64,000 nucleotides of DNA from Candidatus Cloacimonadota bacterium. Lineage in GTDB: Bacteria > Cloacimonadota > Cloacimonadia > Cloacimonadales > Cloacimonadaceae. The stretch is taken from NCBI GenBank assembly GCA_028681035.1, contig JAQUJJ010000001.1, positions 1 to 64,000 of the forward strand. Reading direction: 5' to 3'. A program made the position numbers and the translations under genes. The notes beneath the pieces were generated by a model that searched no databases, was not told the DNA's origin, and saw only the letters and a list, made by a program, of their open reading frames with translations. Of the stretch, positions 5,220 through 62,316 are shown in pieces (position 1 is the stretch's first letter; each line of letters begins with the position of its first letter).

Positions 5220-5423
5220 ACTCCTCTTATTGGGCTGCCAATCTCCGAATTGGCAGAGACAGTGAAACTGTCTGAAAAGCATTCTACGGATGCTGTGGCA
5301 AATCGTAGTTTGCCACCCCATGCACCAGCATAGGTTTCTCCTTGCTTGCATTGCCCTATCATTGCCCACCTAATGCCCACCACAAGGGCAATGAGTGGGC
5401 AATGATAGGGCAGTGCAAGCAAG
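5220..5423 (+). repeat. Composite hairpin element, copy A (four hairpins plus 11-bp-phased palindrome)
   Basis: From 5235 four hairpins follow almost without gaps: CTGCCAAT/ATTGGCAG (5235-5256), AGACAGT/ACTGTCT (5257-5273), AGCATTC/GGATGCT (5278-5294, one T-G pair) and GTGGCAAA/TTTGCCAC (5295-5316). After a 24-nt link comes a large palindrome, 5341-5423, with 29-nt arms (one wobble) and a further paired core. Its TGCCC boxes start at 5352, 5363 and 5374 and the mirrored GGGCA boxes at 5386, 5397 and 5408, all 11 bp apart. The whole element is present in reverse orientation at 21146-21336, with matching loop sequences. No protein is encoded. It lies between tetR and the terminator of the lipoprotein gene. 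Confidence 0.85.
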
Positions 5424-5475
5424 CTTACATGTAGAACGGCATTCCGATACTGCTGATTGAGAAAAGTAACTCAAG

Positions 5476-5502
5476 AAAAAAAACCGACCTAAGTAGGTCG
5501 GT
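5476..5502 (-). terminator. Rho-independent terminator of the folD/lipoprotein operon
   Basis: On the minus strand an ACCGACCT/AGGTCGGT stem with a 4-base loop is followed by seven or more T residues. It lies about 30 bases past the stop of the lipoprotein gene. The stem is perfect, a textbook intrinsic terminator. Confidence 0.9.
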
Positions 5503-5531
5503 TTACAATTATACCTTATCTATTGGTGCAG

Positions 5532-7964
5532 CTATTGTACGCCGCACTCACTAATGATTGTATTAATCATCGCTCTGGCATCATCCGCTACCATATAGGA
5601 CAGCGGGAAACCAAATGTGTAAGCTTTCCCGCCAGAGGGATTGGTCTTGCGTATTCCCACAGGTTGGTTAGCAAATGAATTGAAAATAGTTGAATCTGCT
5701 GGAGAATAGTTATCAGTTCCAACAGGTTTGCATCCCAGCTTATAAATTGTTTCTCCAGTAGCACTCTTGAAATAGGCAACTGAACCTATGCCTTTATAGC
5801 GAGTGTTAATAAGATTAAAGTAACTGTCGGTTGTATTCAACGCTATATCATTAAAGCCTGTAGCACTGGAGATAGCTTTGTAAAAGAATGGGTTAGTATT
5901 AACAGATGTGCTCATTATTTTAAGTGCACTACTATTAGGAATGCCCATGGCGTTAATTAAGGTGTTCCTTCTTCCAAATGGTGAAACATCTGTGATCGCA
6001 GCCGTTAGCCTGCTAGTGTGAGAAACTACAAGATTTCCTCCATTTAGCATATACAAAGCTAAAGCATCGGCATTATTTACTAGACCATCTGGTTCCTCTA
6101 AACGCCCGGCAGCACTTGGATTGTCATTGTGATACAAAACCATCTTATACTTTTGCAAATCACTCAAAGCAAGCTGTCTGTTTCTCGCATCGGAATATGT
6201 ATCCTGGTCATTAAGTCCTGCCTTTGATTGATTAATGAAACGGGGAGTACCTGTATAGTTTTGGAATAATGATTCATAGTAACTCTGCACAGCAACTTGA
6301 GGCGAATAACTGTTGTGTATCTTATCGTCATCAATCACTAACACACCGCTACGCAATGAGGGAGGATTATATCTATGCAGATAGAATCTAAATTCTGCGG
6401 GAATGGGATCTACCACACCTTGTAAATCTTCACAGGCAATTTGGAAAACATGTTCTCCTGGCTCGGCATTATCTGGAATTGGTAATCCAGTAAGCAAAAT
6501 TGATTGACCAATTACCGAAGTAACGGGAATTCTAAGCCACCAATCTCCGCTAGCATCCTGTGTCCTAAGATGAGCATATGGTGGGAAATCATAAGCGTCA
6601 TTATCATAACGCAACCAATAATAAGTAATCTCACTTAAGTAATTCACTCCCGTATTTCTATCACGGACAACATCTACCTTTTTGCCATAAGGGTTTTGGT
6701 CTTCATAGATGAACACTGTGTCATTTTCTACTTTTGCATATTCTCCAGACCAGCCCCAACGGAGCCACAGTTTCAAATTATTCGAATACACGGCGGTATT
6801 CTTACCTTCCAAATCTTTGAAAAATGGAGTAGCCCATCTCTGAGCACCTTGAGTGAATTGAGTGGGTAAAACCTCTGGAGTAGTGGCGTCTCCCCAGTCC
6901 TCATAATGATAATCACCCATAGCATAGGTCTTTTTTCCATAGACTAAGCTCTTTGGGCTAAAACCAGCTTTAACTTGGAAAGTCATTACCGTACCAGAAC
7001 TCGTAAGCGAAACAACACCACCCCTGTCTGTAACTCTGGCAATAACACGAGTTTTAGAGATGGCATTACCATTGGCATCATAATCGTAGCTAATAGGAGG
7101 GTTAGATCTGAGATTTAAAAGGAACTGATTAATCTGCAATAACTGACCTGCTTCAACATGTTGAGTTTTAGTATCTATCCACACTAGGCTTTCAGGGGGA
7201 GTAATCACAGTGCCTAAAAGATCTGTTTTCTGAAGCTGGAATTCGTATTTGAATGGAATAGTCGGCAGAGCTGGATCACCACCTCCCATAGAAAAACTTA
7301 GTTTAAGTCCTGCACCAACAATTTTACCATTGGCATTACCTTTGGTAGTAGATACAACGCAGGTAGGACGAATCGATGTTGTAGCAAAATTACGCCAGGC
7401 TACATTGGAGGTTATTGCCCCGCGATTATCAATAGCAACCACTTCAAAACGGCTTGCTTTCTGCAAAGGATTTCCATCTTCATCAGCAGCGGGGAAATTG
7501 ATTTCTGCATACTTCTGTGATGTCCAAATTGTACGCCTTGTTGCTAGTGAGTCTAGAGAATTGGTTTCGTCCTCGCCCGGAACGTAGTGGATAACCCATC
7601 CACCTCTTGGGTCAAGGTCAAGCAAATTTTGCGGGATGAGATTGTCTGCGGCGGAAGATAGATGCTCATAGCCAGGAGTTGCAATAGGTTTTCCATTTTC
7701 ATCCAAAACTCTGAAAGCATAGCCTGTTACAATACCGTCTTTATCCCAAGCATGCCAGTATATACGTTGATGAAAACTGTAAACTAGGGCTGTATTATAT
7801 CCTGCGGCAACATAGGTGCTGTCCCAACCTTCAAACGAGGTTATCTGTATTTCAGGTGCTTGGTTACCCAAGCGGTTTCCAGATTTGCCACAGCCTGTAA
7901 TAATTAGCATGACTGTTAGCATCATTAACATGATGGACAAGAGTTTAAAGCTCTTAATTTGCAT
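5532..7964 (-). CDS. Large surface lipoprotein of unknown function
   Basis: The protein has 810 residues from the start chosen here, the second ATG of an ATGATG pair, four bases after GGGAGG. It has a lipoprotein signal ending LIITGC, then a long extracytoplasmic region of beta-rich, Ig/fibronectin-like segments (ITSFEGWDSTYVAAGYN and others). The C-terminal third looks like a Rossmann-type or GATase-like fold: GVLVIDDDKIHN, YKMVLYHNDNP and LYMLNGGNLVVSHTSR recall the DUF4350/ThuA style, but I do not recognise a named family with confidence. Its start lies inside the folD 3' end, so the two are translationally coupled, although no functional link is evident. It is the last gene before a strong terminator. 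Confidence 0.85.
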   Translation of the reverse strand: MQIKSFKLLSIMLMMLTVMLIITGCGKSGNRLGNQAPEIQITSFEGWDSTYVAAGYNTALVYSFHQRIYWHAWDKDGIVTGYAFRVLDENGKPIATPGYEHLSSAADNLIPQNLLDLDPRGGWVIHYVPGEDETNSLDSLATRRTIWTSQKYAEINFPAADEDGNPLQKASRFEVVAIDNRGAITSNVAWRNFATTSIRPTCVVSTTKGNANGKIVGAGLKLSFSMGGGDPALPTIPFKYEFQLQKTDLLGTVITPPESLVWIDTKTQHVEAGQLLQINQFLLNLRSNPPISYDYDANGNAISKTRVIARVTDRGGVVSLTSSGTVMTFQVKAGFSPKSLVYGKKTYAMGDYHYEDWGDATTPEVLPTQFTQGAQRWATPFFKDLEGKNTAVYSNNLKLWLRWGWSGEYAKVENDTVFIYEDQNPYGKKVDVVRDRNTGVNYLSEITYYWLRYDNDAYDFPPYAHLRTQDASGDWWLRIPVTSVIGQSILLTGLPIPDNAEPGEHVFQIACEDLQGVVDPIPAEFRFYLHRYNPPSLRSGVLVIDDDKIHNSYSPQVAVQSYYESLFQNYTGTPRFINQSKAGLNDQDTYSDARNRQLALSDLQKYKMVLYHNDNPSAAGRLEEPDGLVNNADALALYMLNGGNLVVSHTSRLTAAITDVSPFGRRNTLINAMGIPNSSALKIMSTSVNTNPFFYKAISSATGFNDIALNTTDSYFNLINTRYKGIGSVAYFKSATGETIYKLGCKPVGTDNYSPADSTIFNSFANQPVGIRKTNPSGGKAYTFGFPLSYMVADDARAMINTIISECGVQ

Positions 7965-8907
7965 CATTCCTCCCAAACATCTGATTTTTATCTTCTTGAT
8001 TGGCATTAAAAATGAACGTGATAAATTCGTCAATAGTTTTATTGACACCTATTTGTACAAAGCAGGCTTTTATTAGATTCAGAAACAAAACTGAGGTGGT
8101 TATTCTTCCTATACCGCCAGGTACAGGAGTGATAGCTATAGCTTTGTCTAAGCACGAGTTGTAGTCAACGTCACCCACGTACTTAGATTTTCCTTCTTCG
8201 TTAATAATCTCGTTAATACCCACATCCAACAATATGGCATTTTCTTTCACCATATCGGAACCTACAAAGTTACTTTTACCAATCGCCGCAATTAAAATAT
8301 CGGCATTCCGGGTAATGTCTTTCAGATTATTGGTTTTGCTGTGGCATACTGTAACAGTTGCATTAGTAAATGCTTTTTTCCATAGTAATATGTTTGCCAA
8401 AGGCTTTCCAACAACGCTGCTTCTGCCTAGGATTACGAGATTCTTTCCCATTGGGTCTATATGGTAATAACGCATTAAATAATAAACCGCAGCAGGAGTG
8501 CAGGGCAATAATCCATCTGCCTCAATCATTATCTTGCCGAGATTTAGGGGGTGTAAACAATCCAGGTCTTTATCTGGATTTATAGCGAAATTGATAGCGT
8601 TGTCGTTGATATGCTTAGGCAAAGGTTTCTGAATCATGATGCCATTAATCGCAGGATCAGAATTGGCAGCTTTGATAAAATCCAGCAATTCCTGTTCAGA
8701 GGTATTCTCTGGTAATTGCTTTAGGGTTGTTTTACATCCAAGCTTTGTTCCGTGTTTAATAATGCTTTGAACATAATATGCCGATGCAGAGTCATTGCCA
8801 ACTTGAATCAATAACATTTGGGGTATTATGCCATGTTCGTTAATCAGTTTTATGGAAGCCCTGTCTAGTAAGGTTGCAACAGGTTTTCCATTAAGCACTT
8901 TTTCCAT
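7954..8907 (-). CDS. folD: FolD-family methylene-THF dehydrogenase/cyclohydrolase with altered active site
   Basis: This 317-residue protein has the FolD landmarks in order: QVGNDSAS, GIMIQKPLPKHI, DKDLDCLHPLN, the Rossmann motif VILGRSSVVGKP, LLDVGINEI, GDVDY and ITPVPGGIG. FolD normally oxidises methylene-THF and hydrolyses methenyl-THF in the cytoplasm. Two changes stand out. The YVxxK motif carrying the catalytic lysine reads YVQSI, so the lysine is isoleucine. The PGGVGPMT loop reads PGGIGRIT, with arginine for proline. Loss of the lysine would be expected to impair the cyclohydrolase step. The gene sits seven bases after ymdB and overlaps the lipoprotein gene. About 25 residues after the conserved end are extra. 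Confidence 0.92.
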   Translation of the reverse strand: MEKVLNGKPVATLLDRASIKLINEHGIIPQMLLIQVGNDSASAYYVQSIIKHGTKLGCKTTLKQLPENTSEQELLDFIKAANSDPAINGIMIQKPLPKHINDNAINFAINPDKDLDCLHPLNLGKIMIEADGLLPCTPAAVYYLMRYYHIDPMGKNLVILGRSSVVGKPLANILLWKKAFTNATVTVCHSKTNNLKDITRNADILIAAIGKSNFVGSDMVKENAILLDVGINEIINEEGKSKYVGDVDYNSCLDKAIAITPVPGGIGRITTSVLFLNLIKACFVQIGVNKTIDEFITFIFNANQEDKNQMFGRNDAN

Positions 8908-8914
8908 AATCTCC

Positions 8915-11287: not shown

Positions 11288-11309
11288 ATAAACAATCCTT
11301 TTTTTGTAA

Positions 11310-11480: not shown

Positions 11481-11513
11481 TTATACAACTCATAACACGA
11501 ATTCTGCAGGCAA

Positions 11514-11783: not shown

Positions 11784-11786
11784 GGT

Positions 11787-12110: not shown

Positions 12111-12117
12111 AATCTTA

Positions 12118-16448: not shown

Positions 16449-17198
16449 CTATATGGTCTCTGGTTCCTTTTTCTTTCTCGGGGGCTTTACAGCCTTGGGT
16501 TCTGCTATTTTAACTACAGTTTCCACAACTGGGATTTCAATAGTTTCTTCAGCAACAGCAGCAGGTATTACAGCAGCTACGTCAACAGGAGATTCAACCG
16601 TTTCAACAGCCCCATCGCCTGGGTTGGCTTCTTTAGCAAGGATACGGTCAATTTCCTTTTTGGGGGATACAACCATGGAAAGCAGGTTTCTATCCGATAC
16701 TGGTTCGCTATCGATATCCACAATGTAGCCAAGTTCAGCTTTCAGCTTGTCCAAAACTCTGTAACCAAGTTCCTTATGAGCCATCTGGCGTCCCCTGAAT
16801 CTAATGGTGAATTTCACCTTGTTGTGTTGCTTCAGGAATTTGATGGCGTTGTTTTTCTTGAAGTTAAAATCGTGCTCTTCAGTATTAGGCCCGAACTTGA
16901 TTTCTTTCACTTCCACTTCATGTTGTTTCTTGCGAGCTTCTTTGGCTTTCTTTTCTTTCTCGAAGTAGTATTTGCTAAAATCCAAAATACGGCATACTGG
17001 CGGATCGATATTGGGGGATATCTCTACGAGATCGAGATTGGCTTCTTCCGCTCTACGCAGAGCTTCACGTACGGATACCACACCAATTTGTTTGCCATCG
17101 GCACCAATCAAGCGAACTTTATCCGCACTGATTTGGTTGTTGATACGCTCTTTTGGAACCACTTCCTTGGTTCTGGCTTTACCCTTTTTGATCCGGAT
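16449..17198 (-). CDS. infC: Translation initiation factor IF-3 with non-AUG start
   Basis: The protein has 249 residues from the start chosen here. The N-terminal domain has NNQISADKVRLIGADGKQIGVVS; the linker has YYFEKEKKAKEARKKQ; the C-terminal domain has KEIKFGPNTEEHDF and VKFTIRFRGRQMAHKELG. After the conserved end there is a roughly 70-residue Ala/Val/Pro-rich tail ending in a basic PPRKKKEP patch, longer than usual. A GTG at 17162 would drop conserved basic residues and has no Shine-Dalgarno. AGGAGG (17207-17212) stands eight bases before ATC (17198) and five before ATA (17201), so AUC or AUA is the likely start, as in the AUU-type autocontrol of E. coli infC. Confidence 0.93.
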   Translation of the reverse strand: MRIKKGKARTKEVVPKERINNQISADKVRLIGADGKQIGVVSVREALRRAEEANLDLVEISPNIDPPVCRILDFSKYYFEKEKKAKEARKKQHEVEVKEIKFGPNTEEHDFNFKKNNAIKFLKQHNKVKFTIRFRGRQMAHKELGYRVLDKLKAELGYIVDIDSEPVSDRNLLSMVVSPKKEIDRILAKEANPGDGAVETVESPVDVAAVIPAAVAEETIEIPVVETVVKIAEPKAVKPPRKKKEPETI

Positions 17199-21048: not shown

Positions 21049-21145
21049 GTGAAGAAAGATGCAAACGAGAGCTATTTATTGATATTTTGAAAAGTAACAA
21101 TGGAATCACAATGCAGATGATAGGTTTTAACAGCACTCTTACAAG

Positions 21146-21336
21146 CATTTCCCTAACATTGCCCACTCATTGCCCTTATTGTGGGCATTGGGTGGGCAAT
21201 GATAGGGCAATGCAAGCAAGGAAGAAGCTGGTGAATGGGGTGGCAAACTACGATTTGCCACAGCATCCGCAGGATGCTTTTCAGACAGTTTCACTGTCTC
21301 TGCCAATTCGGAGATTGGCAGCCCAATAAGGGGAGT
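21146..21336 (-). repeat. Composite hairpin element, copy B (inverted relative to copy A)
   Basis: The same module as at 5220-5423, reversed. Palindrome boxes are TGCCC at 21160 and 21171 (the outer one decayed to TTCCC at 21149) and GGGCA at 21183, 21194 and 21205, again 11 bp apart. Then come the four hairpins: GTGGCAAA/TTTGCCAC (21240-21261), AGCATCC/GGATGCT (21262-21278), AGACAGT/ACTGTCT (21283-21299) and CTGCCAAT/ATTGGCAG (21300-21321). Three of the four hairpin loops match copy A exactly. In the third hairpin the T-G pair of copy A is a C-G pair here. The outer palindrome arm on the low-coordinate side is degenerate. It lies between gdhA and the PFK gene. Confidence 0.85.
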
Positions 21337-21377
21337 TAAAATAGAAAAAAACCGCATGTTTAACATTTTAACTCATA

Positions 21378-22704: not shown

Positions 22705-23703
22705 ATTGTTGGAAGAGACTAATATTTCTTTTAACCAATCTTTTTAGCGGGGGGAGATTCTGTCCAGAAGAAAACACGCAGCTCCTGAAAAAATGGACAA
22801 GCACCAACAACAAAGCTAACTCTGCAAAAGTGAATGAAAGTTGCGATACTGGAGCAGCAGGCATCTTGCCTATGCTGGAGTAGCAGGCATCTTGCCTGCG
22901 TTAACAAACGGGACACCTGTTGTTCCAGTACAGGCGTCCCACTCTAAGGTTCTTTTAACTCCTTAACTCTTTGTTTATCAGTCCTTTAGTTTACATATCC
23001 TATTTCTTCCGGTTTCGGGTCTTGATCAACAAAGCTGGCTGTTGACAAACCTCGATAGAGGTGGAATACTTTAGCCTGAGGTGTGAACCTCAGGTATGAA
23101 TAGGAGTATCAAACAAACCACATGGGGGTGACACAATAATTGGTAACACATTGCTATAATGTTATATATGTCGCCCCAAAAGGGCTTTATATCTCTCTTA
23201 ATGCTGACCTGGGGTTTCGCTTCGCTACACCCCAGGCTAAGATATTTCGTCCCTGCGGGACTTTGTCAACAGCCTGAGCCCGTTAGGGCGACATCCGATA
23301 GCGACGGGTTCGCAGCATTGCGGATAGCAATGTGAAGACCCTCGACAAATGCAAGAATCAGTTTAGCCCCATTGGGCGACATATAATGCCATTTGATATA
23401 TTATCGGTCGTTTAGAAATATTCAAAAAACCCATGTTGCGCAATCTATACAATATTGATGGTAGATTGTGTCGCCCCAAGGGGCTAAATCGTAGGTTCAT
23501 GTTACGAGGGTCTCCATGCCTTCGGCATTCCGAACCCGTCGGTATCGGATGTCGCCCTCACGGGCTTTAATGAGGGTACCCATTACAATTGATATCTCTA
23601 AAAACAATGGGTAGGTAAAATTCAATTCCTTGGTATCACTAGCTGTTTCAACAAAGGTGGTAACCCATTAGCATAGATTACAGCCTTTACAGAAACGTTA
23701 GTT
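22705..23703. other. Non-coding, repeat-rich interval of about 1 kb
   Basis: No credible gene is seen. From 22850 two GCAGGCAtctTGCCT-type palindromes repeat in tandem. From 23160 the DNA is full of GTCGCCC/GGGC palindromes and carries a large inverted repeat described separately. At 23622-23736 the minus strand can be read as a frameshifted continuation of the upstream metalloprotease-like gene (see findings). Confidence 0.6.
23286..23557. repeat. Widely spaced 27-nt inverted repeat pair
   Basis: The 27 bases at 23286-23312 (starting GGGCGACATCCGATA) and those at 23531-23557 (starting CGAACCCGTCG) are reverse complements with one mismatch, 218 bases apart. Similarity continues inward (GAAGACCCTCG near 23333 against CGAGGGTCTCC near 23504) and the interior holds GTCGCCCC-type palindromes. 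The whole block is an imperfect palindrome of roughly 300 bases. Confidence 0.75.
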
Positions 23704-25926
23704 TCATTGTGATAGAAGCAATGGCTTTTTGATTGAGGGGGATGCATCAATTGCCACAACTACATCAATGCCATTGTCCTTCACCATAAATCCCGGTTCG
23801 GTTCTGCCATCAAAGCCATCCATTACGTCAGCAGCACTGAAGGCAAAGTGGATTGTATCATCTGGTGTAGTGGGGCTGCCAATATCCACTATTATGTCAT
23901 ATTCACCCTCTTCGGTGGCTACCCATATTTGCCCGTCCCAATCTCCGGAGGCATCTGTGGTAGCCGTTGTATTGGGTGAAAAGCCATTGGGATAGAAGCT
24001 GCTTAAGGATGATATAGGTGCACCATCTGTATAAGTGTAATCCCCGTGTTTTACCACATAGATATTTATCCGGGTATTCTGGGGGCAATTAGTTACCTTC
24101 ACGTTCACAGGATCATTAAGCCCAAAGATGTTCCTGCCTTTCTGCCCGGAACTATAACTCTCCACCGTGGGATAGAAATGCAAGCCACGGCTGTTGTAAG
24201 CATCTTTAATTATATTCTGGGTTGCAGTATTTGCATTTTGCATAAGTAGGTTAAAAAAATATCTTGGCTTGTGTTTATCTTGATCATCCTCTATGACAGC
24301 CTCTAAAGCTTCAAGCAATTTACTGTCGAAATTATCAAACCAGAGACTCACTCGGATATTATCCCAAACTGCTGCAATAGGCATACCACAATAATACCAC
24401 GAATAGAAATCTTCGTTTAGAGGCAATCCTTGGGGGTTATAGATTGAAGAAGACTGAACATTATAAATGTCGAGCAAATCAATCGCAATTGAATTCCCAT
24501 CATAATTCCGAATAAAGCTGTTGGTATCAAGACCTTTTCCCAACCAATATTCTGCGAATGCTTCGTCCATTGCGTCATTACCCATTGTTGAGGCAAATGT
24601 TGCATTATTCATTCGGTTGTAGGTGAAGAAATGAGATAATTCATGCATTATTATGTATGGGTTGTATCCATTTTGGTAATGGATTGCTAGTGCACCAGTA
24701 TTAAGATTAACTTCAAAAATTCCTCCCCAGTCATTTGCTGGCAAAGCTTCATTATCATTGAAAATAACTGGATAGTTTACATCTGAGAATGAAGAGCTTA
24801 GATTTGTAAAGACACTGTCTATTTTCTGGAGATGATAGTAAATGTTTGCAGCATACAAGGAGGGATCTGTTGGATTAAGTAAATCTTGGGTATCTATAGT
24901 GTCCTGGATAATGGTCTCGTAGTTCATCGAATCGATTTCTGTATAGTAGTGTACGTTTAACGCGTTTGTGCCACAATAAATTGACCTAATGTCCCATCTT
25001 TCGCTTTCCAAGCTTACTGTAAAATTGTCTTGGGGAACAGAAGATAATTGGATGATCCCATTAAGATCAGTATAATCAGCTTCACTGCCATTCTCAACAT
25101 GTATAGCCTTTAACGGTGATATAGGAGGGGTCGTAGGATCAAACACTAACCCGCTAATAGTTGGCTTGTACGTTTTGCCTTTTACTGAATAATTATAGTA
25201 TTTCATAGTATTTTCGTATTGGTATATTTCTAAAGTTTCTGCATCAATACTGTAAGAAACCTGAAAAAACATCATTGACCAAAATAATCTATATGGCGTT
25301 GGATCTCCAACTGTTGAAATTCTGTGATAGCCAATACTTGGTTCTTGGGAACTCCCCCTTATACGTCCATTATAGAACTCTGACTTTTTATATTCATTGA
25401 TCATAATCTCTTTAGCATCATCTTTACTGATGTTTATGGGAATCGGTGTATTGGGTATATCTGCTGTAGCATCAGAGATAACAAACTCATTAGTTGAGAT
25501 GTTGTAAGCTATCCGTATATATCCCCCTGGATAAACGCCATAACCATTAACCCTTTGCTCCCATTTCTTTGATACCGCAGATTGGTTACTTTCGATATTT
25601 AGGGGGAAAAGTTGACCTTCACGAGCTGATGTGAAGGGAGACATCGTTAGCATCACTTGATCGAGTGCGCGTTCAGCTAATTCCTCATTTTGAGGGTCTT
25701 TCAATTGGATATTATAAAATGTCCCATGAAGTATGGAAAATTTCGCTTTCTGTAGATTGTAACTAATATCACCCTCAAACCCCGTTTCTGCCTTGAATCT
25801 TTCAGAGAGTGCTTTTAGTTCTCTGGTTTTACGCTGATACTCCGCATTCTCGTTGGGATCATCGCTGCAATACAATATGGCTACTACCACTAGTAGCAGG
25901 ATTGCTAGAAATACTCTTGTTTTCAT
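23704..25926 (-). CDS. Secreted zinc-metalloprotease-like protein (HExxH), possibly frameshifted at its end
   Basis: A 740-residue protein with an export signal (residues 1-20, Cys20 could be lipidated but the lipobox is poor). Residues about 85-185 resemble a thermolysin-type propeptide. Residue 428 starts HELSH and residue 455 lies in DEAFAEYW, giving the HExxH...E zinc set of gluzincins. A beta-rich C-terminal module of about 110 residues (GDYTYTDGAP to EPGFMVKDNGIDVV) is nearly duplicated in the next gene upstream. The final residues read AIDASPSIKKP before a stop; deleting one C from a run of five (23737-23741) would extend the frame to 23622. The neighbouring paralogue supports that alternative ending. 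Start has AGGAG eight bases upstream. Confidence 0.82.
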   Translation of the reverse strand: MKTRVFLAILLLVVVAILYCSDDPNENAEYQRKTRELKALSERFKAETGFEGDISYNLQKAKFSILHGTFYNIQLKDPQNEELAERALDQVMLTMSPFTSAREGQLFPLNIESNQSAVSKKWEQRVNGYGVYPGGYIRIAYNISTNEFVISDATADIPNTPIPINISKDDAKEIMINEYKKSEFYNGRIRGSSQEPSIGYHRISTVGDPTPYRLFWSMMFFQVSYSIDAETLEIYQYENTMKYYNYSVKGKTYKPTISGLVFDPTTPPISPLKAIHVENGSEADYTDLNGIIQLSSVPQDNFTVSLESERWDIRSIYCGTNALNVHYYTEIDSMNYETIIQDTIDTQDLLNPTDPSLYAANIYYHLQKIDSVFTNLSSSFSDVNYPVIFNDNEALPANDWGGIFEVNLNTGALAIHYQNGYNPYIIMHELSHFFTYNRMNNATFASTMGNDAMDEAFAEYWLGKGLDTNSFIRNYDGNSIAIDLLDIYNVQSSSIYNPQGLPLNEDFYSWYYCGMPIAAVWDNIRVSLWFDNFDSKLLEALEAVIEDDQDKHKPRYFFNLLMQNANTATQNIIKDAYNSRGLHFYPTVESYSSGQKGRNIFGLNDPVNVKVTNCPQNTRINIYVVKHGDYTYTDGAPISSLSSFYPNGFSPNTTATTDASGDWDGQIWVATEEGEYDIIVDIGSPTTPDDTIHFAFSAADVMDGFDGRTEPGFMVKDNGIDVVVAIDASPSIKKPLLLSQ

Positions 25927-26125: not shown

Positions 26126-26683
26126 TTATTTCTTTGATTGTAGGGCTTTGCTTTGAGCTGCCAAAACAACCATAGCCATCACCACATCTATATTTATGTC
26201 CTTCACCATAAATCCCGGTTCAGTTCTGCCATCAAAGCCATCCATTACGTCAGCACCACTGAAGGCATAATGAATTAATCCATCTGGTGTAGTGGGGCTG
26301 CCAATATCCACTATTATATCATATTCACCTTCTTCGGTGGCAACCCATATCTGCCCGCTCCATACTCCAGAGGCATCTGTGGTAGCCGTTGTATTGGGTG
26401 TGAAGCCATTGGGATAGAAGCTGCTTAAGGCTGATACCGGCGCACCATCTGTATAAGTGTAATCCCCATCTCTATTATCTATTTGAGCAACATTGTAGCC
26501 CATGCCACTTATCAATTCTAAGATTTGTGCTCTTTCAATCTCTGTATAGGCATTCCCACTTTCTCTATTGGACATAAGCGTATAACATCCTAAGGGATAC
26601 TCTTCAAAACTTACTGCTCCAAGTAAAGAGAGAAATATCGCGAAGGCAGCACATAAACCGAATTTCATCTGCGTGTTTAACAT
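26126..26683 (-). CDS. Small exported protein, paralogue of the metalloprotease C-terminal module
   Basis: A 185-residue protein: signal peptide (residues 1-25), about 40 unique residues (YTEIERAQILELISGMGY), then about 110 residues almost identical to the tail of the preceding metalloprotease-like protein (DGDYTYTDGAP to DGFDGRTEPGFMVKD). The DNA of the shared module (26172-26470 and 23751-24050) is about 90% identical by eye. It may be a deletion remnant of a second full-length copy or a real short partner. AAGGAG stands six bases before the ATG, so it is probably translated. Function unknown. Confidence 0.7.
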   Translation of the reverse strand: MLNTQMKFGLCAAFAIFLSLLGAVSFEEYPLGCYTLMSNRESGNAYTEIERAQILELISGMGYNVAQIDNRDGDYTYTDGAPVSALSSFYPNGFTPNTTATTDASGVWSGQIWVATEEGEYDIIVDIGSPTTPDGLIHYAFSGADVMDGFDGRTEPGFMVKDINIDVVMAMVVLAAQSKALQSKK

Positions 26684-28642: not shown

Positions 28643-28962
28643 TAGCTTGTTCTTGGCTTTGCTTCATGTCATTATGTAATAGGAATCCATCTCTTAAAAA
28701 CCTTCAAGCGCATTGGAAATCTCTAAGCAAATTATGTCAAGTTATAAATGCTAAATATTTCGCTACTTGATATATTGTTTCTTAGGAACATGAATTCTTA
28801 GCTTTGGAAATATAAATCGCAATTCTGTCCCAAAATCTCAGATTTGTCCCCCTTACATTATAGAAGCTTTTATTCTTTGATATGTGTATAGAGTGTTTAT
28901 GTGTTAGAAAGTCGAGGAGTCGAGATGTATGATGTAGAGCAGCATTCCAATGCTGCTGAGGG

Positions 28963-29060
28963 TGGAAGGGTGGAAGAGTGGAAGGGTGGAAGGGTGGAAG
29001 GGTGGAAGGGTGGAAGGGTGGAAGAGTGGAAGAGTGGAAGGGTGGAAGAGTGGAAGGGTG
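28963..29060. repeat. Octamer tandem repeat TGGAAGRG, about 12 units
   Basis: The unit TGGAAGGG, with some TGGAAGAG variants, runs without interruption for about 12 copies. Because 8 is not a multiple of 3 the tract stays open in several frames on both strands and produces spurious repetitive ORFs. It looks like a slippage-prone minisatellite. Confidence 0.9.
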
Positions 29061-29395
29061 GAAAGGTGAAACAAATGGATAGTTTGAGTTGCATAGCTAG
29101 AGATTAAGAACGGCTCTTTTTTACTTTTTGTAAAACAATGTTTTAGCAAGACTGTAGTCCTGCAACCGGTAACAACAGCCGCCCTCGGCTGTTTTCACAC
29201 GAGGCGTGTGAACTTACAAGCGTGTATATTCTCGCTATCCATCGCGGTAGTCCTTGCCCCAGTGTAACTAATTGGATAGTTAAAGTATGCTGTTGTGGCA
29301 ACGACTCCAGACTCAGCCGTAGAGTAGCTTATCCTGCCCAGCAGAAAATGCTTGCCCAAATAAAGAGTATAAAAAATGATGGCTTGGGAGTATAG

Positions 29396-46676: not shown

Positions 46677-46761
46677 CCTTGCTTGAATTGCCCTATCATT
46701 GCCCACCCAATGCCCACCACGAGGGCAATGAGTGGGCAATGATAGGGCAATTCAAGCAAGG
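46677..46761 (+). repeat. Phased palindrome, copy C (without the hairpin chain)
   Basis: An almost perfect 85-base palindrome with outer arms CCTTGCTTGAATTGCCC and GGGCAATTCAAGCAAGG. TGCCC boxes start at 46689, 46700 and 46711, and GGGCA boxes at 46723, 46734 and 46745, spacing 11 bp throughout. Compared with copy A, a C-G pair in the outer arm is an A-T pair here, changed on both sides. The four-hairpin chain is absent. It lies between rpsT and the glycosyltransferase fusion gene. Confidence 0.88.
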
Positions 46762-53511: not shown

Positions 53512-53513
53512 AC

Positions 53514-56785: not shown

Positions 56786-56796
56786 GGGCATGAGTT

Positions 56797-57372
56797 ATGC
56801 ATAGCAGCAAACTTAAGCAAGCTGGATACCTACTTGGAATTGGATTAGGGATAGTTATAGTAACAGCTTTTGCCTTTAGTCAAATCATCTTTCCAGTAAT
56901 CCTAGGGCGCACACCGAAAGTGGAGATTCCTGAAGTAACAGGGCTAACCTTACTTCAAGCCAAACGGATGCTCCAGGATGAAAAGCTGCACGTTGTGGTG
57001 AAAGATTCGCTTTTCAGTGAATCAGCTAGAGTCGAAACTGTTTTAGAACAAAACCCTATAGCAGGAGAGAAGATTAGACAAGATGGTACGGTGTATCTAA
57101 TTATCAGCAAGGGTTCACCCAACGTTGTTGTTCCGTCGATTATCGGCAGACCCTTTCAAGAGGTGATTGTTTCTCTTAGGTCTTTGGGTTTACACACTTT
57201 GGTTGCGGATTCAACATATTCTGATATCTACACGGTAAATGCTGTCATGCGAAGTATTCCATCTTCTGGAAGCAAAGTAAACAAGGGATCTACAGTACGG
57301 CTAATTCTTAGCAGAGGTAGTATGCAAATCATAGACACATTATCAACATCGCTGCCCGTTTATCCATATTGA
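56797..57372 (+). CDS. Membrane-anchored two-PASTA protein
   Basis: A 191-residue protein with an N-terminal membrane helix (about 10-33) and two PASTA repeats facing the periplasm (VEIPEVTGLTLLQAKRMLQDEKL and VVVPSIIGRPFQEVIVSLRSLGL). There is no kinase or transpeptidase domain. PASTA units bind peptidoglycan fragments or act as spacers. rsmB followed by a PASTA protein is common in the FCB group. In this window the gene occupies the place where nqrA would normally precede nqrB. Confidence 0.88.
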   Translation: MHSSKLKQAGYLLGIGLGIVIVTAFAFSQIIFPVILGRTPKVEIPEVTGLTLLQAKRMLQDEKLHVVVKDSLFSESARVETVLEQNPIAGEKIRQDGTVYLIISKGSPNVVVPSIIGRPFQEVIVSLRSLGLHTLVADSTYSDIYTVNAVMRSIPSSGSKVNKGSTVRLILSRGSMQIIDTLSTSLPVYPY

Positions 57373-57383
57373 AGGCGGAAACT

Positions 57384-58313: not shown

Positions 58314-58993
58314 GCACGAAGAGTTTTAAGGATACCATGCTATACCCGATTGTGTTTATGCTGGTTATGTCGATTGTTTTCGTGGGCGTATTGGCGGTAA
58401 TGTATCGGGGTAGCCAAGCCAAGATTGAGGCATATAAAAAGGAAACTTATCAGAAGATGGTGCTTAGCTTGCTTGCCACTTCTATCGGCGAAGCTACCAA
58501 TACCAAGCCTTTCCACATTAATGCAGATTACCCCAATTCCTATAACCAATACGTAAAAGAGATTACTTTTAGCGGCTTAGATAAACGTGTTTTTATCGCA
58601 GAAGTTGATGCAGTGGTTTTGGGTTATTGCGTGGATATTAGCGGCAAGGGATTATGGGGAACTATGCGCGCACTTGTTGCTCTATCACCAGATTTTAAGA
58701 CCTTGCATGGCATATCTATCTACGATCAAATGGAAACGCCCGGTTTGGGAGCGCGTATTGGTGAAGATTGGTTTGTAAACCAGTTTAACAATTTCCCAAT
58801 TCTGAAAGCAGATGGCAAGCCGGGGGATTATGTGTTAGACACGCAGCTTATCCCAGAGGATGCAAAAGCTGAACAAACAAATCAAATACGGCAAATCACG
58901 GGGGCGACAATAACGACTTTCAGTGTGATAAAAATGCTGCAAAGCGAAATTAACCTCGTTTATGCAGCGTATCTTAGGCAGGCAAAGCTATGA
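58310..58993 (+). CDS. nqrC: NqrC/RnfG-family FMN-binding subunit
   Basis: A 227-residue protein with an N-terminal membrane helix (about 10-32), a periplasmic FMN-binding domain with ISIYDQMETPGLGARIGEDWF, and the flavinylation motif QITGATITTFSV (threonine of the [S/T]GAT[IL]T type). It carries covalent FMN outside the inner membrane. Family length is slightly short. It overlaps both neighbours by four bases. Maturation needs an ApbE-type flavin transferase, which is not in this window. Confidence 0.92.
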   Translation: MSTKSFKDTMLYPIVFMLVMSIVFVGVLAVMYRGSQAKIEAYKKETYQKMVLSLLATSIGEATNTKPFHINADYPNSYNQYVKEITFSGLDKRVFIAEVDAVVLGYCVDISGKGLWGTMRALVALSPDFKTLHGISIYDQMETPGLGARIGEDWFVNQFNNFPILKADGKPGDYVLDTQLIPEDAKAEQTNQIRQITGATITTFSVIKMLQSEINLVYAAYLRQAKL

Positions 58994-59586
58994 CAAAGAA
59001 AGAAATATTCAGCATTAGCGCATTCAAAGAGAACTCTGTCTGGCGTCAGATACTTGGTATCTGTTCGGCTTTGGCAGTAACCAATCTGATGATGAACAGC
59101 CTTATTATGGGCTTGGGAGTTATCTTTGTTCTTGCTTTATCCGGTTTCACCATCTCTCTGTTGCGAGCTTGGACTCCGCGCAGCATAAGGATGATGGTGC
59201 AAACTCTAATCATAGCAACATATGTGATTATAGTGGATATCTTCTTGCAAGCTTATTATCCCACCGTTAGCAAGCAGCTAGGTCCCTATGTGGGTCTAAT
59301 CATCACCAATTGCATCTTAATGGGCAGAGCCGAAGCTTTTGCATCGCAAAACAAGCCTCTGGATTCGTTAGTTGACGGTGTAGGAGCTGGGGTTGGATAC
59401 ACCTTTGTCTTGCTGGTTATCAGTTTTATCCGTGAGTTGTTTGGTTTTGGCAGTTTATTTGGCATCAAGGTTTTAGGGGATTGGTGGACAAACTGGTCTA
59501 TCATGGTGATGGCTCCCAGTGCCTTCTTTATTCTGGCGATGTTCATTTGGGTTATTAACGTTAAATACTATAAGAATAAGGCTTAA
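58990..59586 (+). CDS. nqrD: NqrD/RnfE-family membrane subunit
   Basis: A 198-residue protein with six helices and the signature ITNCILMGRAEAFASQNKPLDSLVDG region (half of the conserved NqrD/NqrE cysteine pair is the Cys of TNCILMG). It forms with NqrE a pseudo-symmetric pair holding an iron site in the membrane. It starts with an ATGA overlap and ends four bases before nqrE. Confidence 0.93.
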   Translation: MTKKEIFSISAFKENSVWRQILGICSALAVTNLMMNSLIMGLGVIFVLALSGFTISLLRAWTPRSIRMMVQTLIIATYVIIVDIFLQAYYPTVSKQLGPYVGLIITNCILMGRAEAFASQNKPLDSLVDGVGAGVGYTFVLLVISFIRELFGFGSLFGIKVLGDWWTNWSIMVMAPSAFFILAMFIWVINVKYYKNKA

Positions 59587-59590
59587 GAAA

Positions 59591-60178
59591 ATGGATATTA
59601 GTGTTTTCGTGCTGTTTTGGGCTGCTATCTTCACCAGCAACATTCTGCTTACCAATTTCTTGGGGATGTGTTCTTATCTTTCTGTTTCCAGAGACATAGA
59701 ATCTTCTTTTGGACTTGGCATTTCGGTAATATTTGTATTGACCATAACAACGGGTTTAAACTGGCTGGTTTACCGATACATCCTTGTTCCCTTTGATATC
59801 ATTTATCTGCAATACATCGTGTTTATCATTGTTATCGCCGCATTTGTACAGCTCCTAGAGCTTATTATCGAACGCTATGCTCCAGCTTTGTATTACACTC
59901 TAGGTATCTTTTTACCTCTCATAACCGTGAACTGCGCTATCTTTGGGGTTAGCTTGTTTATGGTAATCCGCAGCTACAATTTCTTACAGTCCATCGCCTA
60001 TGGCGCAGGCAGTGGAATTGGCTGGCTGATGGCAATAATGATGCTGGCAGCTATACGCCGCAAACTGAAAGAAAAGCTAGTTCCTGTAGGATTGCAAGGT
60101 GTGGGCATTAGCTTGATAATAACCGGAATCATGGCTTTGGCTTTTGTCGGCTTTTCCGGCATTGTTCAGGTTCAATAG
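59591..60178 (+). CDS. nqrE: NqrE/RnfA-family membrane subunit
   Basis: The protein has 195 residues from ATG 59591, where the family starts (MDISVFVLFWAAIFTSNILLTNFLGMCSY); the frame is open further upstream inside nqrD. It has six helices, with conserved ILLTNFLGMC near the N-terminus and ITVNCAIFGVSLF in the middle, the two cysteines facing the shared iron site with NqrD. Partner of nqrD. Confidence 0.94.
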   Translation: MDISVFVLFWAAIFTSNILLTNFLGMCSYLSVSRDIESSFGLGISVIFVLTITTGLNWLVYRYILVPFDIIYLQYIVFIIVIAAFVQLLELIIERYAPALYYTLGIFLPLITVNCAIFGVSLFMVIRSYNFLQSIAYGAGSGIGWLMAIMMLAAIRRKLKEKLVPVGLQGVGISLIITGIMALAFVGFSGIVQVQ

Positions 60179-60186
60179 GGGATATT

Positions 60187-61293
60187 GTGTTTATTGATAT
60201 TCTAAAAGACATCGCTTTTTTAAGTATTATCAGTGTGTCCCTCGCCACGATAATGGTGATAGCCCAAAAGTGGTTAAGTAATTATGGTGACTGCAAGATT
60301 GATATCAATGGCAAGCGTGAAGTTACCGTTACCGGTGGCAATAGCCTTTTATCTTCTCTTTCTGACAAACAGATATTTCTTCCTTCAGCTTGTGGGGGAC
60401 GGGGTACCTGTGGCGCATGTAAATGTAAAGTTATCTCTGGTGGTGGTCCCTTGCTGCCCACAGAAAAGCCAGTTCTAACCGCAGAGGAGATAGCGGCTGG
60501 TGATATTCGCTTATCGTGCCAGGTAAAGGTGAAGAGTGATATTAAGATAGAAATCCCCTCCAGTATCTTTAATATTCGTCGTTTCCAAGCCGTAATAGAA
60601 GAAGTAATTGACTATACATACGATATTAAGGGCATAACATTCAAGCTGGATAAGGATGATAAGATAGATTTCAAAGCTGGACAGTATGTTCAGCTTGATA
60701 CAGCGCCTTATGCTAAGGTGAAACAAAACGTATCCAGAGCCTATTCTATATCCTCCAAACCGGAGATTAACGACGCTTTACAACTGATTATACGATATGT
60801 ACCAGAAGGTATTTGCACTACATGGGTGCATCAGTTTCTTAAAGTCGGAGACCGTGTTAGTTTAACCGGACCCTATGGCGATTTTTGTCTAAGGGATACT
60901 GAAGCAGACATTATTTTCGTTGCAGGAGGCTCTGGAAAAGCCCCCATTAAATCGATGTTAGAACATTTACAGGTGGTGGGAACGAATAGAAAGATGACAT
61001 ATTTCTTTGGAGCAAGAACCCCAAAGGATTTATATTTAACAAATGAGATGAAAGCTATGGAACAAGAGTTTCCTGATTTCAAATACGAACCTATCCTTTC
61101 TGCCGCAGAGCCGGAAGATAAATGGACAGGCAAAACAGGATTTGTTATGCCATATTTTGCAGAAGCAATACGCGACCCCAAGAACACCGAGGCTTACTTG
61201 TGCGGTAGCCCCGGAATGATTAGTGCTGTAACGAAATCTCTTATTGAAAACGGGATTCCAAAGGACAAAATTTACTACGACAGTTTTGGATGA
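60187..61293 (+). CDS. nqrF: NqrF-type NADH dehydrogenase subunit
   Basis: A 368-residue protein: N-terminal membrane helix (residues 3-25), a plant-type [2Fe-2S] domain with C-x5-C-x2-C (ACGGRGTCGACKCKV) and the fourth cysteine in LSCQV, an FAD domain with SRAYSISSKP, and an NAD domain with VAGGSGKAPIKSML and YLCGSPGMISAV. This arrangement marks NqrF and is absent from Rnf complexes, so the cluster is NQR-like. The start is GTG. It feeds electrons from NADH into the membrane subunits. It is somewhat shorter than typical NqrF (about 405). Confidence 0.95.
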   Translation: MFIDILKDIAFLSIISVSLATIMVIAQKWLSNYGDCKIDINGKREVTVTGGNSLLSSLSDKQIFLPSACGGRGTCGACKCKVISGGGPLLPTEKPVLTAEEIAAGDIRLSCQVKVKSDIKIEIPSSIFNIRRFQAVIEEVIDYTYDIKGITFKLDKDDKIDFKAGQYVQLDTAPYAKVKQNVSRAYSISSKPEINDALQLIIRYVPEGICTTWVHQFLKVGDRVSLTGPYGDFCLRDTEADIIFVAGGSGKAPIKSMLEHLQVVGTNRKMTYFFGARTPKDLYLTNEMKAMEQEFPDFKYEPILSAAEPEDKWTGKTGFVMPYFAEAIRDPKNTEAYLCGSPGMISAVTKSLIENGIPKDKIYYDSFG

Positions 61294-61297
61294 TATT

Positions 61298-61750
61298 ATG
61301 AAAGAAACAAAAACAGAACAAAGAATCCGTGCTCGCATGTTGCCGGGTGCGATTACCCTCTCGGGTTTCATTGGCAAAGATAAAAGAGCACTTTATGCCA
61401 TTATCAGTGCAGATGAACAAGAACTTGAAAGACTTGGTAAAACTGCGGAAGAACTGGCAGACCGCATGCTATACTTCACGGATGCAAGCTTTAGTACATT
61501 CGACGGGACAATAACTGTTGATGAACACTATATTGTGGAGACTGAAGTTACACGCGGTAAGCTGCCCTGTCCTTTTGCACATGGCGGTGTTTTCCGTAAA
61601 GCAATTACCAAGCTTACCAATACGAAGAACAACACTACAGCATCTTGGTCATTTCTCAACATTCATTTGATTAAAGAGCATCACTTCTTCGAAGGTAAAG
61701 GCTCAACCTTTAGAATCGAACCTGCCAAGCTTGTAGAAGTTCTATTTTAG
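61298..61750 (+). CDS. Conserved 150-residue protein downstream of nqrF, function unknown
   Basis: Length is 150 residues from the ATG at 61298, four bases after nqrF; an earlier in-frame ATG lies inside nqrF and is unlikely. The sequence (MLPGAITLSGFIGKDKRALYAIISADEQELERLG, then a C-terminal VTRGKLPCPFAHGGVFRKAI) is compact and soluble, with one cysteine. I do not recognise its family. Position as the last gene of the ruvC-to-nqrF run hints at a link with the NQR complex, but this rests on context alone. Confidence 0.75.
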   Translation: MKETKTEQRIRARMLPGAITLSGFIGKDKRALYAIISADEQELERLGKTAEELADRMLYFTDASFSTFDGTITVDEHYIVETEVTRGKLPCPFAHGGVFRKAITKLTNTKNNTTASWSFLNIHLIKEHHFFEGKGSTFRIEPAKLVEVLF

Positions 61751-61910
61751 CAAAATATGCAACCTAGAGCACTAGCTTTGGGTTGCATTCTTCTTGCTCT
61801 GTAACAACAGCAGCCTCGGCTGTTAGCTTCATTCTTAGCTATAGCTATTTTAGGCTCAAGTTCATTTATGGTGGGTAAGGAGACTTGATCACCAAAAATG
61901 TAAAAGAGAA

Positions 61911-62107
61911 GTCCCAGCGGGACAAAAGGTATTAGCGACGGGTTTTAACCCGGCGACAATGGAGAAAAAGAACATTGCTAGTCCCAGCGGGACGACAGAT
62001 GTAATCATATATGTTCGTAAGTATTAACGCAAAGAAAAAGCTACCTGTCACCCCGTTTGGTTCATTTATATGACGTATTTATCACGCCGGGTTAAAACCC
62101 GTCGCTA
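61911..62107. repeat. GTCCCAGCGGGAC palindromes and a perfect 23-nt inverted pair
   Basis: GTCCCAGCGGGAC occurs at 61911-61923 and 61981-61993. The 23 bases at 61933-61955 (TAGCGACGGGTTTTAACCC...) are the exact reverse complement of 62085-62107. Each also has an internal CGGGTT/AACCCG palindrome. The group resembles the GTCGCCC cluster at 23286-23557 in style (GACGGGTT is shared). Confidence 0.8.
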
Positions 62108-62234
62108 GTACCGATCATCCCTAAAGGGTCTAAAATTGAACAGCCTAAACTAGTTGCCAAGCAGCCCACATATACAATCACCCACTCTAATTGAACTTGA
62201 GCCCTATTTTAGCCGAATGGACTCTCCAGTTCCC

Positions 62235-62316
62235 TGCTTGAATATCCCTATCATTGCCCACTCATTGCCCTCTTTGTGGGCATTGGGTGGGCAATGATAG
62301 GGCAGTGCTTGCAAGA
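62235..62316 (-). repeat. Phased palindrome, copy D
   Basis: A palindrome in the orientation of copy B. TGCCC boxes start at 62255 and 62266 (the outermost is ATCCC at 62244), and GGGCA boxes at 62278, 62289 and 62300: every spacing is 11 bp. The outer arms (GCTTGAATATCCC, GGGCAGTGCTTGC) are partly degenerate. The four-hairpin chain is absent. The element ends about eight bases from the intrinsic terminator of the C39-like gene. Confidence 0.85.

What the first reader, a model, noticed from the sequence alone, without database searches (positions are those of the whole stretch)
5341..62316. Four dispersed palindromes with six TGCCC boxes set exactly 11 bp apart
Copies A (5341-5423), B (21146-21215), C (46677-46761) and D (62235-62316) each carry three TGCCC boxes on one arm and three GGGCA boxes on the other. 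I counted the spacing in every copy: 11 bp each time, about one helical turn, so all boxes of an arm face the same side of DNA. Copies differ in loop and outer arms but keep the spacing, and one outer pair has changed from C-G (A) to A-T (C) on both strands. They sit only between genes, often beside 3' ends or terminators, about 15-25 kb apart. Phasing suggests protein binding (nucleoid organisation, supercoiling or segregation) as well as cruciform or RNA folding. The function is inference; the spacing is seen.
Basis: partly seen in the sequence, partly recalled or inferred. Interest (0 to 1): 0.78.

Follow-up and report, generated by a model that had tools for sequence, protein, structure and literature searches.

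The report
Repeats built in 11-letter steps
Scattered between the genes of this uncultured bacterium and its relatives are palindromic DNA repeats that share the same ends but carry different, species-specific interiors, built in 11-base-pair steps, which points to a mobile-type element recognised by a repeating protein assembly that has not been identified.

Summary
The four palindromes are real and intergenic, and their 11-bp register is exact. Only A and C carry six TGCCC/GGGCA boxes; B and D carry five. The best-matching genome, Ca. Cloacimonetes HGW-Cloacimonetes-3 (G001), has about 31 copies of this family (FA). A hairpin scan of G001 plus the window found 135 long hairpins; in 127 the arms repeat best at 11 bp. 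I group them in nine families (202 places). One end sequence, CTTCTTCCTTGCTTG and its complement, recurs in seven families with unrelated interiors. Where found, it starts 44, 55 or 66 bp from the centre in 209 of 233 arms. A search for the end pair alone found other 11-bp ladders in six further Cloacimonadota genomes. In five genomes, 70 of 98 listed ladder matches are 85-86 bp, 25 are 107-108 bp and none is 96 bp; two other genomes break this length rule. Terminators, RAYT/REP elements and strand-specific RNA are disfavoured. Best explanation: a miniature, non-autonomous mobile-type repeat whose ends and ladder are read by a two-fold-symmetric oligomeric DNA-binding protein, probably its recombinase. 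The protein is unknown and mobility is indirect. A nucleoid or partition role is not excluded.

The parts
5340..5423 (+). Copy A: ladder palindrome, six boxes (TGCCC at 5352, 5363, 5374; GGGCA at 5386, 5397, 5408), CCTTGCTTG end at 5340-5348, CAAGCAAG end at 5416-5423
21137..21220 (-). Copy B: same family, opposite orientation, five boxes (TGCCC at 21160, 21171; GGGCA at 21183, 21194, 21205; left outer box is TTTCCC)
46677..46761 (+). Copy C: 85 bp, near-perfect palindrome, six boxes (TGCCC at 46689, 46700, 46711; GGGCA at 46723, 46734, 46745)
   Evidence: folds at -69.2 kcal/mol as RNA, shuffles -23.0
62232..62315 (-). Copy D: same family, opposite orientation, five boxes (TGCCC at 62255, 62266; GGGCA at 62278, 62289, 62300; left outer box is TATCCC)
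5213..5339 (.). Tail of copy A with several small hairpins (by eye); with the ladder it forms a unit repeated in inverted orientation at copy B
   Evidence: blastn of the window against itself: 5213-5416 versus 21343-21145, 90.7% over 204 bp
21221..21343 (.). Tail of copy B, counterpart of 5213-5339

Best explanation
The four palindromes belong to a class of miniature, non-coding, mobile-type repeats of Cloacimonadota ('ladder palindromes'). SHOWN: elements have an interior of three or more 11-bp units per arm mirrored about a short centre; many carry the same end, CTTCTTCCTTGCTTG and its complement, which where found sits 4, 5 or 6 x 11 bp from the centre in 209 of 233 arms. Box sequences differ between families and species while the step does not. 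INFERRED: the recurring ends are read by a recombinase or transposase supplied in trans, and the 11-bp units are equivalent subsites, about one helical turn apart, for a two-fold-symmetric row of protein subunits (the same enzyme or a partner). All units of an element then have to suit the same subunit, so boxes change together while the step stays fixed, and units tend to be gained or lost in both arms at once. INFERRED: new copies are born as near-perfect palindromes through a fold-back or hairpin stage, after which the arms drift apart. INFERRED from their size: no gene is carried, so the elements are non-autonomous.
For: Hairpin scan of 2.61 Mb of G001 plus the window: 135 hairpins with at least 25 of 33 pairs; best arm self-shift (5-16 tested) is 11 in 127. 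The same scan found 0 hairpins in 150 kb of E. coli, in 85 kb of viral loci and in 750 kb of block-shuffled G001. Nine families by my grouping, 202 places. Arms with the end sequence at up to 2 mismatches, with shuffled arms in brackets: FA 23 of 70 (2), FB 62 of 142 (2), FC 21 of 52 (1), FD 20 of 32 (1), FE 12 of 58 (2), FI 7 of 18 (0), FF 5 of 12 (1), FG 0 of 18, FH 0 of 2. End-to-centre distance 44, 55 or 66 (integer part) in 209 of 233 arms at up to 3 mismatches. Outside catalogued elements the end is rare: 5 intergenic matches, 3 of them missed ladders. End-pair pattern with free interior: 30 of 124 genomes match, many of the single matches not ladder-like; G032 44, G049 32, G007 19, G001 13. 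Of 98 listed ladder matches in G001, G006, G007, G032 and G049, 70 are 85-86 bp, 25 are 107-108 bp, 3 other, 0 at 96 bp. Seven representatives from six other genomes have best shift 11. Mobility, indirect: 199 of 202 outside predicted genes (186 between two genes, 13 at contig edges); the GDH-PFK gap holds an FA copy in the window, an FI copy in G001 and no ladder in G006 and G007; copies A and B lie in a 204-bp inverted duplicate; FA found in 1 of 49 genomes of the family. Arm coupling: in G049 the two arms agree at four variable columns in all 23 listed copies, with 7 haplotypes; FC has 37 both-side changes against 21.7 in shuffles, 0 of 300 as high.
Against: No clear target-site duplication was found, no larger element with these ends was seen in G001, and no candidate enzyme was identified. 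FA is clustered on a few contigs (p 0.0002 against contig length) while FB-FE are not, which a domain-bound binding site would explain as well. FA and FB show no arm coupling, and 5 of 23 G049 copies differ between arms at the innermost pair. The length rule is not universal: of 68 G001/window elements with both ends found, 46 are equal, 4 differ by exactly 11 and 18 by other amounts, often 4; in G046 and G004 the matches that repeat at 11 are 98, 109 and 97 bp long. Most arms of the families do not carry the end at 2 mismatches. Of the four 15-kb stretches of other genomes, L235 and L237 showed no hairpin at 23 of 33 although each was chosen around a weak family match.
Confidence: 0.5

Rival explanations
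1. Host chromosome sites: each ladder is a binding array for a nucleoid, macrodomain or partition protein (works like matS or parC), spread over the chromosome by selection rather than by transposition.
For: Fixed 11-bp register and two-fold symmetry; FA copies concentrate on contigs C15, C30, C3 and C20 (22 of 31) and are absent from the contig with dnaA (C4); window density is about one per 16 kb.
Against: Patchy presence, interiors that differ between sister species, several families side by side in one genome of which, among FA-FE, only FA is clustered, and shared end sequences that look like terminal inverted repeats.
Confidence: 0.2
2. The functional form is a folded strand: a single-stranded DNA hairpin handled by a hairpin-reading enzyme, or an RNA hairpin whose A-form helix has about 11 bp per turn.
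For: Very stable folding of copy C; mirrored arms at four variable columns in G049 and coupled arms in FC; 11 bp fits A-form (recalled) better than B-form.
Against: No arm coupling in FA or FB; no significant strand preference relative to flanking genes in any of five families, n 7-42 each; common in divergent gaps (47 of 186); no Rfam match at any ladder in the window and three G001 loci searched.
Confidence: 0.16
3. By-product of replication: slippage and template switching at palindromes made the tandem units and mirrored arms, with no protein read-out.
For: Tandem units and arm correction can arise this way in principle (recalled: quasipalindrome mutation).
Against: Does not explain one step length in unrelated sequences, ends that recur across genomes, or zero 96-bp elements among 98.
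Confidence: 0.07
4. REP/REPIN elements moved by a RAYT (Y1 transposase).
For: Intergenic dispersed palindromes; G001 has six Y1_Tnp matches, one with an FA copy 399 bp away; 36 of 49 genomes of the family have a Y1_Tnp match.
Against: G032, with 44 end-pair matches, has no PF01797 match (draft genome caveat); GTAG/CTAC is not enriched at the ends (50 of 404, 12.4%, against 13.8% background); the Y1 gene at C15 is flanked by a different repeat; elements are longer than REPs.
Confidence: 0.05
5. Bidirectional intrinsic terminators or mRNA 3' stabilisers.
For: Stable hairpins, some next to 3' ends; copy D lies beside a terminator-like hairpin; convergent gaps are somewhat over-represented over all families, 41 of 186 against 99 of 683.
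Against: T5 follows 10 of 404 ends against 3.9% background; divergent gaps are as common as expected, 47 of 186 against 157 of 683.
Confidence: 0.02

Closest known systems
REP / REPIN / BIME elements with TnpAREP (RAYT)
   Same: Short, intergenic, dispersed, palindromic, many copies, sequence differs between species; two close pairs in G001 recall BIMEs
   Different: 85-109 bp rather than 20-50 nt (PMC8266576, passages read); no GTAG enrichment at the ends; 11-bp ladder; ends shared by families with unrelated interiors; a genome with 44 end-pair matches has no Y1_Tnp match
MITEs (miniature inverted-repeat transposable elements; definition recalled)
   Same: Inverted terminal sequence, no gene, many intergenic copies
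   Different: No clear target-site duplication, no parent element found, interior built as an 11-bp ladder
ParR/parC centromere of plasmid R1
   Same: [quoted passage not shown] phased array for an oligomer
   Different: Direct repeats at one plasmid locus, not inverted ladders dispersed over a chromosome; no protein shown here
matS/MatP type chromosome-domain sites (recalled)
   Same: A few dozen dispersed sites, FA regionally clustered
   Different: matS is one short conserved motif in a conserved system; here interiors turn over between sister species

Membership tests
REP/RAYT | Palindrome of 20-50 nt preceded by GTAG-type tetranucleotide | tested here: not met
   Listed ladder matches 85-109 bp; GTAG/CTAC near ends 50 of 404 against 13.8% background
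REP/RAYT | Cognate Y1 transposase in the genome, often flanked by the repeat | tested here: not met
   G032: 44 end-pair matches, 0 Y1_Tnp matches, draft genome; the six Y1 matches of G001 lie 0.4-7.2 kb from the nearest ladder
MITE | Terminal inverted repeats | tested here: met
   CTTCTTCCTTGCTTG ends in part of the arms of FA-FE, FI and FF, far above shuffled arms except FF (5 of 12 against 1)
MITE | Target-site duplication | tested here: inconclusive
   None clear, but exact boundaries are unknown
MITE | Full-length relative with transposase and the same ends | tested here: inconclusive
   None seen in 2,608,869 of 2,636,210 bases of contigs C1-C31 of G001 at up to 2 mismatches in a 15-mer; contig C32 not fetched
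Intrinsic terminator | T-run after the hairpin | tested here: not met
   10 of 404 ends, background 3.9%
ParR/parC-like site | Array of 11-bp repeats | tested here: met
ParR/parC-like site | Bound by a ribbon-helix-helix ParR with ParM | not tested
   No protein candidate was searched for
matS/MatP-like site | Restricted to one chromosome domain | tested here: inconclusive
   FA clustered by contig, contig order unknown; FB-FE not clustered
Structured RNA | Compensatory changes and strand preference | tested here: not met
   None for FA; arm coupling in FC and G049 fits DNA fold-back as well

The most novel reading that the evidence does not exclude
A categorically new class of bacterial repeat: a modular DNA ladder with fixed ends and a freely changing, internally repeated 11-bp code, copied through a hairpin stage and read by an unknown symmetric protein filament that counts helical turns, so that length changes by whole units in both arms at once and the code turns over in concert from species to species.
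Probability: 0.35. Interest if true: 0.9.

Novelty: new variant of a known kind. Interest (0 to 1): 0.77.

Why it matters
Dispersed palindromic repeats are common in bacteria, but I found none described whose architecture is quantised in helical-turn units across unrelated sequences (searches; open-access library only, listings plus passages). The rule (ends at 4, 5 or 6 x 11 bp from the centre, arms mostly changed together) looks like the footprint of a repeating symmetric protein assembly. It is directly testable and makes an uncharacterised mobile or chromosome-organising system of a poorly known phylum approachable.

Tried and rejected
Bidirectional terminator: rejected on missing T-runs and presence in divergent gaps. 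RAYT/REP: rejected as membership. An early guess that window 16449-17162 was a RAYT was wrong: it is infC. Strand-specific RNA: no significant strand bias, no Rfam match at the ladders searched. Compensatory change in FA: not there. Target-site duplications: none clear. Larger element with the same ends: none seen. The 18-mer hits in Alkaliphilus and Capnocytophaga look like chance. The hit in a low-coverage Geobacteraceae MAG contig (L005) is a real FA copy, but its three ORFs with a match are only 29-47% identical to G001, so its owner is unresolved. Chromosome position of FA-rich contigs: GC skew gave no clear order. GDH search in viral contigs gave relatives of no use here. At a laxer hairpin cut (23 of 33) four hairpins appear in the viral and Capnocytophaga loci, one of them AT-rich with best shift 11, so single weak hairpins prove little. 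The genome paper of Ca. Cloacamonas acidaminovorans is not held. The reading is limited: the intergenic DNA is too diverged to fix exact insertion boundaries.

Dropped rows: copy C30:107313 was left out of the 31-copy alignment because its interior is of another type; members below a score cut were dropped from the catalogue. In the length tally I left out G001 C25 (90 bp) and G006 C33 and C198 (108, 109 bp), which one search shows to be no ladders; the three G046 matches (83 no ladder; 98 and 109 repeat at 11 but off-centre); and all genomes with one or two matches, many of them not ladder-like by eye, though G008, G010 and G014 each show a 107-bp FD-type ladder and G004 a weak 97-bp one. Matches counted but not listed (3 of G007, 9 of G049) could not be measured.
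Full report
Observation. The four palindromes are present at the stated places. GGGCA-N6-GGGCA occurs 14 times in the window, all inside the four copies; 100 dinucleotide shuffles give 0.13 on average and never more than 2. Copies A and C carry six boxes. B and D carry five, because their left outer boxes read TTTCCC and TATCCC. By the sequence around the loop, B and D lie in the opposite orientation to A and C. All four lie between predicted genes.

Relatives. No genome is held for the window. The 18-mer GTGGGCAATGATAGGGCA hits 19 stretches of genome contigs, 16 of them in Ca. Cloacimonetes bacterium HGW-Cloacimonetes-3, here called G001; no viral contig has it. The window's glutamate dehydrogenase is 88% identical to that of G001 and 82-88% to those of ten other genomes of the family, out of 13 genomes searched, so the window comes from a Cloacimonadota species. 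By blastn FA is found in 1 of the 49 genomes of G001's family. Thirty-one copies (4 window, 27 G001; one odd copy dropped) align over 101 columns without a gap; they had been cut to equal length on a gap-free consensus, which favours that result. Mean pairwise identity is 72% within G001 and 84-93% between the window copies, which suggests that the window copies are younger.

What the copies keep and lose. The step is kept; the boxes are not. Only 2 of 31 copies have six TGCCC boxes. Base pairing is no better than in shuffles, so the paired change between A and C is not the rule. Neighbouring boxes of one arm resemble each other more than in shuffles (p 0.0035 for outer and middle, 0.0005 for middle and inner), outer and inner do not (p 0.24), and opposite arms do not (p 1.0, 0.92, 0.05).

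The wider class. I fetched 2,608,869 of the 2,636,210 bases of contigs C1-C31 of G001 (joined). A scan that asks only for a hairpin (33 pairs, at least 25 formed, loop 3-10) found 135 in G001 plus the window. In 127 the arms match themselves best when shifted by 11 out of the shifts 5-16; the other eight have 7, 8, 9, 14 or 15. The same scan found none in 150 kb of E. coli K-12, 85 kb of viral loci, 8 kb each of Alkaliphilus and Capnocytophaga, and 750 kb of block-shuffled G001. I group the hairpins into nine families: FB (unit ATTACGCATGA) 71, FA 35 including the window's four, FE (ATAACCCTCCC) 29, FC (AATTCCCTAAC) 26, FD (TTAATCAAGCG) 16, FG 9, FI 9, FF 6, FH 1; 202 places in all, of which 186 lie between two predicted genes, 13 at contig edges and 3 overlap a predicted gene (my own simple gene caller).

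Shared ends and quantised length. Conservation beyond the core shows the same outer sequence, CTTCTTCCTTGCTTG or parts of it, in FA-FE, although their interiors are unrelated. At up to 2 mismatches in TTCCTTGCTTG it is found in 23 of 70 FA arms, 62 of 142 FB, 21 of 52 FC, 20 of 32 FD, 12 of 58 FE, 7 of 18 FI, 5 of 12 FF and 0 of 20 FG and FH arms; shuffled arms give 0-2 per family. Matches to the 15-mer outside catalogued elements are few: 5 intergenic with up to 2 mismatches, three of which are ladders that the catalogue missed, and 16 inside genes; a shuffled genome has 5. The start of TTCCTTGCTTG lies 44 bp from the centre in 22 of the 23 FA arms, 58 of 62 FB and 10 of 12 FE, and 55 bp from it in 16 of 21 FC and 18 of 20 FD; in FI and FF 4 of 7 and 4 of 5 lie at 55.5 or 66.5. 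With up to 3 mismatches over all families, 209 of 233 arms lie at 44 (136), 55 or 55.5 (67), or 66 or 66.5 (6); three more lie at 77 or 88. Of 68 elements with both ends found, 46 have equal distances, 4 differ by exactly 11 and 18 by other amounts, often 4. Copies within a family are related and do not count as independent; the independent support is the agreement between families and between genomes.

Other genomes. The pattern CCTTGCT-N66-96-AGCAAGG leaves the interior free. In 124 genomes of the phylum 30 have a match: 44 in G032, 32 in G049, 19 in G007, 13 in G001, 5 in G006, 0-3 elsewhere; many of the single matches do not look like ladders. The reversed-pattern control is 0 or 1 in nearly all genomes, but 2 in G106 and 11 in G105, the latter unexplained. 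Listed lengths: G007 107 bp in 16 of 16 listed (19 counted); G032 85 bp in 42 of 44; G049 86 bp in 23 of 23 listed (32 counted); G001 107 bp in 8, 85 in 3, 108 in 1 and one non-ladder of 90; G006 85, 85 and 89 plus two non-ladders. Over these ladder matches, 70 of 98 are 85-86, 25 are 107-108, 3 are 89 or 99 and none is 96, although 80-110 were allowed. The two size classes differ by 22 bp, one unit in each arm. The rule is not universal: in G046 the two matches that repeat at 11 are 98 and 109 bp long with an off-centre or poorly paired hairpin, and in G004 a weak one is 97 bp. Seven representatives that I chose by eye from G049, G032, G006, G007 (two), G046 and G004 all repeat best at 11 (0.44-0.78; in G004 the second-best shift, 14, is close at 0.50 against 0.58); two non-ladder matches repeat best at 12, weakly.

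Mobility, indirectly. The gap between glutamate dehydrogenase and phosphofructokinase holds copy B in the window and an FI element in G001, and is only 90 and 116 bp long in G007 and G006, without a ladder. G003 has an FB element just past the other end of the dehydrogenase gene. Copies A and B are parts of a 204-bp inverted duplicate at 90.7% identity. In G049 the 23 listed copies fall into seven haplotypes at four columns where both arms always agree (read by eye; tallied). Against this, 5 of the 23 differ between arms at the innermost pair, and one of them has further one-arm changes in its inner unit. FC shows coupled arms (37 both-side changes against 21.7 +- 4.0, 0 of 300 shuffles as high), FE weakly (59 against 48.8, 20 of 300); FA, FB, FD, FI and FF do not. 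A simple reading is that copies are born symmetric and later drift. No clear target-site duplication and no parent element were found.

What it is not. Ends are followed by five T's in 10 of 404 cases against 3.9% background. In tandem gaps none of five families prefers a strand. Gap types are near background, with convergent gaps raised (41 of 186 against 99 of 683) and divergent ones as expected (47 of 186 against 157 of 683). GTAG/CTAC is not enriched at ends. G032 has no Y1_Tnp match, and the Y1 gene at C15 of G001 has its own flanking repeat. Rfam finds nothing at the ladders in the window and three G001 loci.

Mechanism. One step length in unrelated sequences, ends in register with it, and unit changes mostly in both arms together are what a two-fold-symmetric row of identical protein subunits would impose. 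Eleven bp is about 17 degrees more than a 10.5-bp turn of B-DNA (recalled), so successive units stay roughly on one face with a slow twist; in an A-form helix they would be aligned. I judge a recombinase-type complex most likely (0.5), because the ends recur across genomes while the interiors turn over. A chromosome-organising protein remains possible (0.2), mainly because FA, unlike FB-FE, is clustered by contig (p 0.0002 against contig length, 0.005 against the other families) and absent from the dnaA contig.

Novelty. Dispersed palindromic and MITE-like repeats are known. Searches of the open-access library returned no paper whose title or abstract start describes an 11-bp-quantised ladder. 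Of the papers returned I read only passages of PMC8266576, PMC9426499 and PMC7111523, and ran a term search in PMC3733652 that returned no passage. I call it a new variant of a known kind, with a fair chance (0.35) that it is a class of its own.

Noticed in passing
window 5213-5416 and 21145-21343: Copies A and B lie in a 204-bp inverted duplicate (90.7%); its tail holds further small hairpins, among them the 20-mer TGGCAAACTACGATTTGCCA, not found in G001 at up to 2 mismatches.
   Followed up: partly
window 23208-23262 (+): Match to Rfam RF01687 Acido-Lenti-1 RNA, 48.1 bits (cut-off 37), in a Cloacimonadota sequence.
   Followed up: no
window 28959-29070: Tandem array of an 8-bp unit GGGTGGAA/GAGTGGAA, about 14 units, outside predicted genes.
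   Followed up: no
window 23745-24044 and 26167-26466: Two 300-nt direct repeats 88% alike inside two neighbouring predicted genes without a Pfam match.
   Followed up: no
window 62320-62355: Terminator-like hairpin with a T8 run (minus strand) right beside copy D, so D is probably not that gene's terminator.
   Followed up: no
G001 C15:74100-75170 (L067, L141): A Y1 transposase gene flanked on both sides by GTAGTCGTGACGACTAC repeats, a separate REP-like set in the same genome.
   Followed up: partly
G001, family FG (for example C28:17556, C1:70888): FG ladders sit inside a longer outer palindrome (CCCTTTAAGCTCCATCTCT...) and lack the common end sequence; their full extent was not determined.
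   Followed up: no
G001 contigs C15, C30, C3, C20: Family FA is concentrated on a few contigs (22 of 31 catalogued G001 copies on these four) while FB-FE are even; cause unknown.
   Followed up: partly
L005 32-104 (JAQUHN010000149.1): A clear FA copy at the end of a low-coverage contig binned as Geobacteraceae; whether it is misbinned or shows spread outside the phylum is open.
   Followed up: partly
G105: The reversed control pattern, not the real one, has 11 matches in this genome; unexplained, perhaps another repeat.
   Followed up: no
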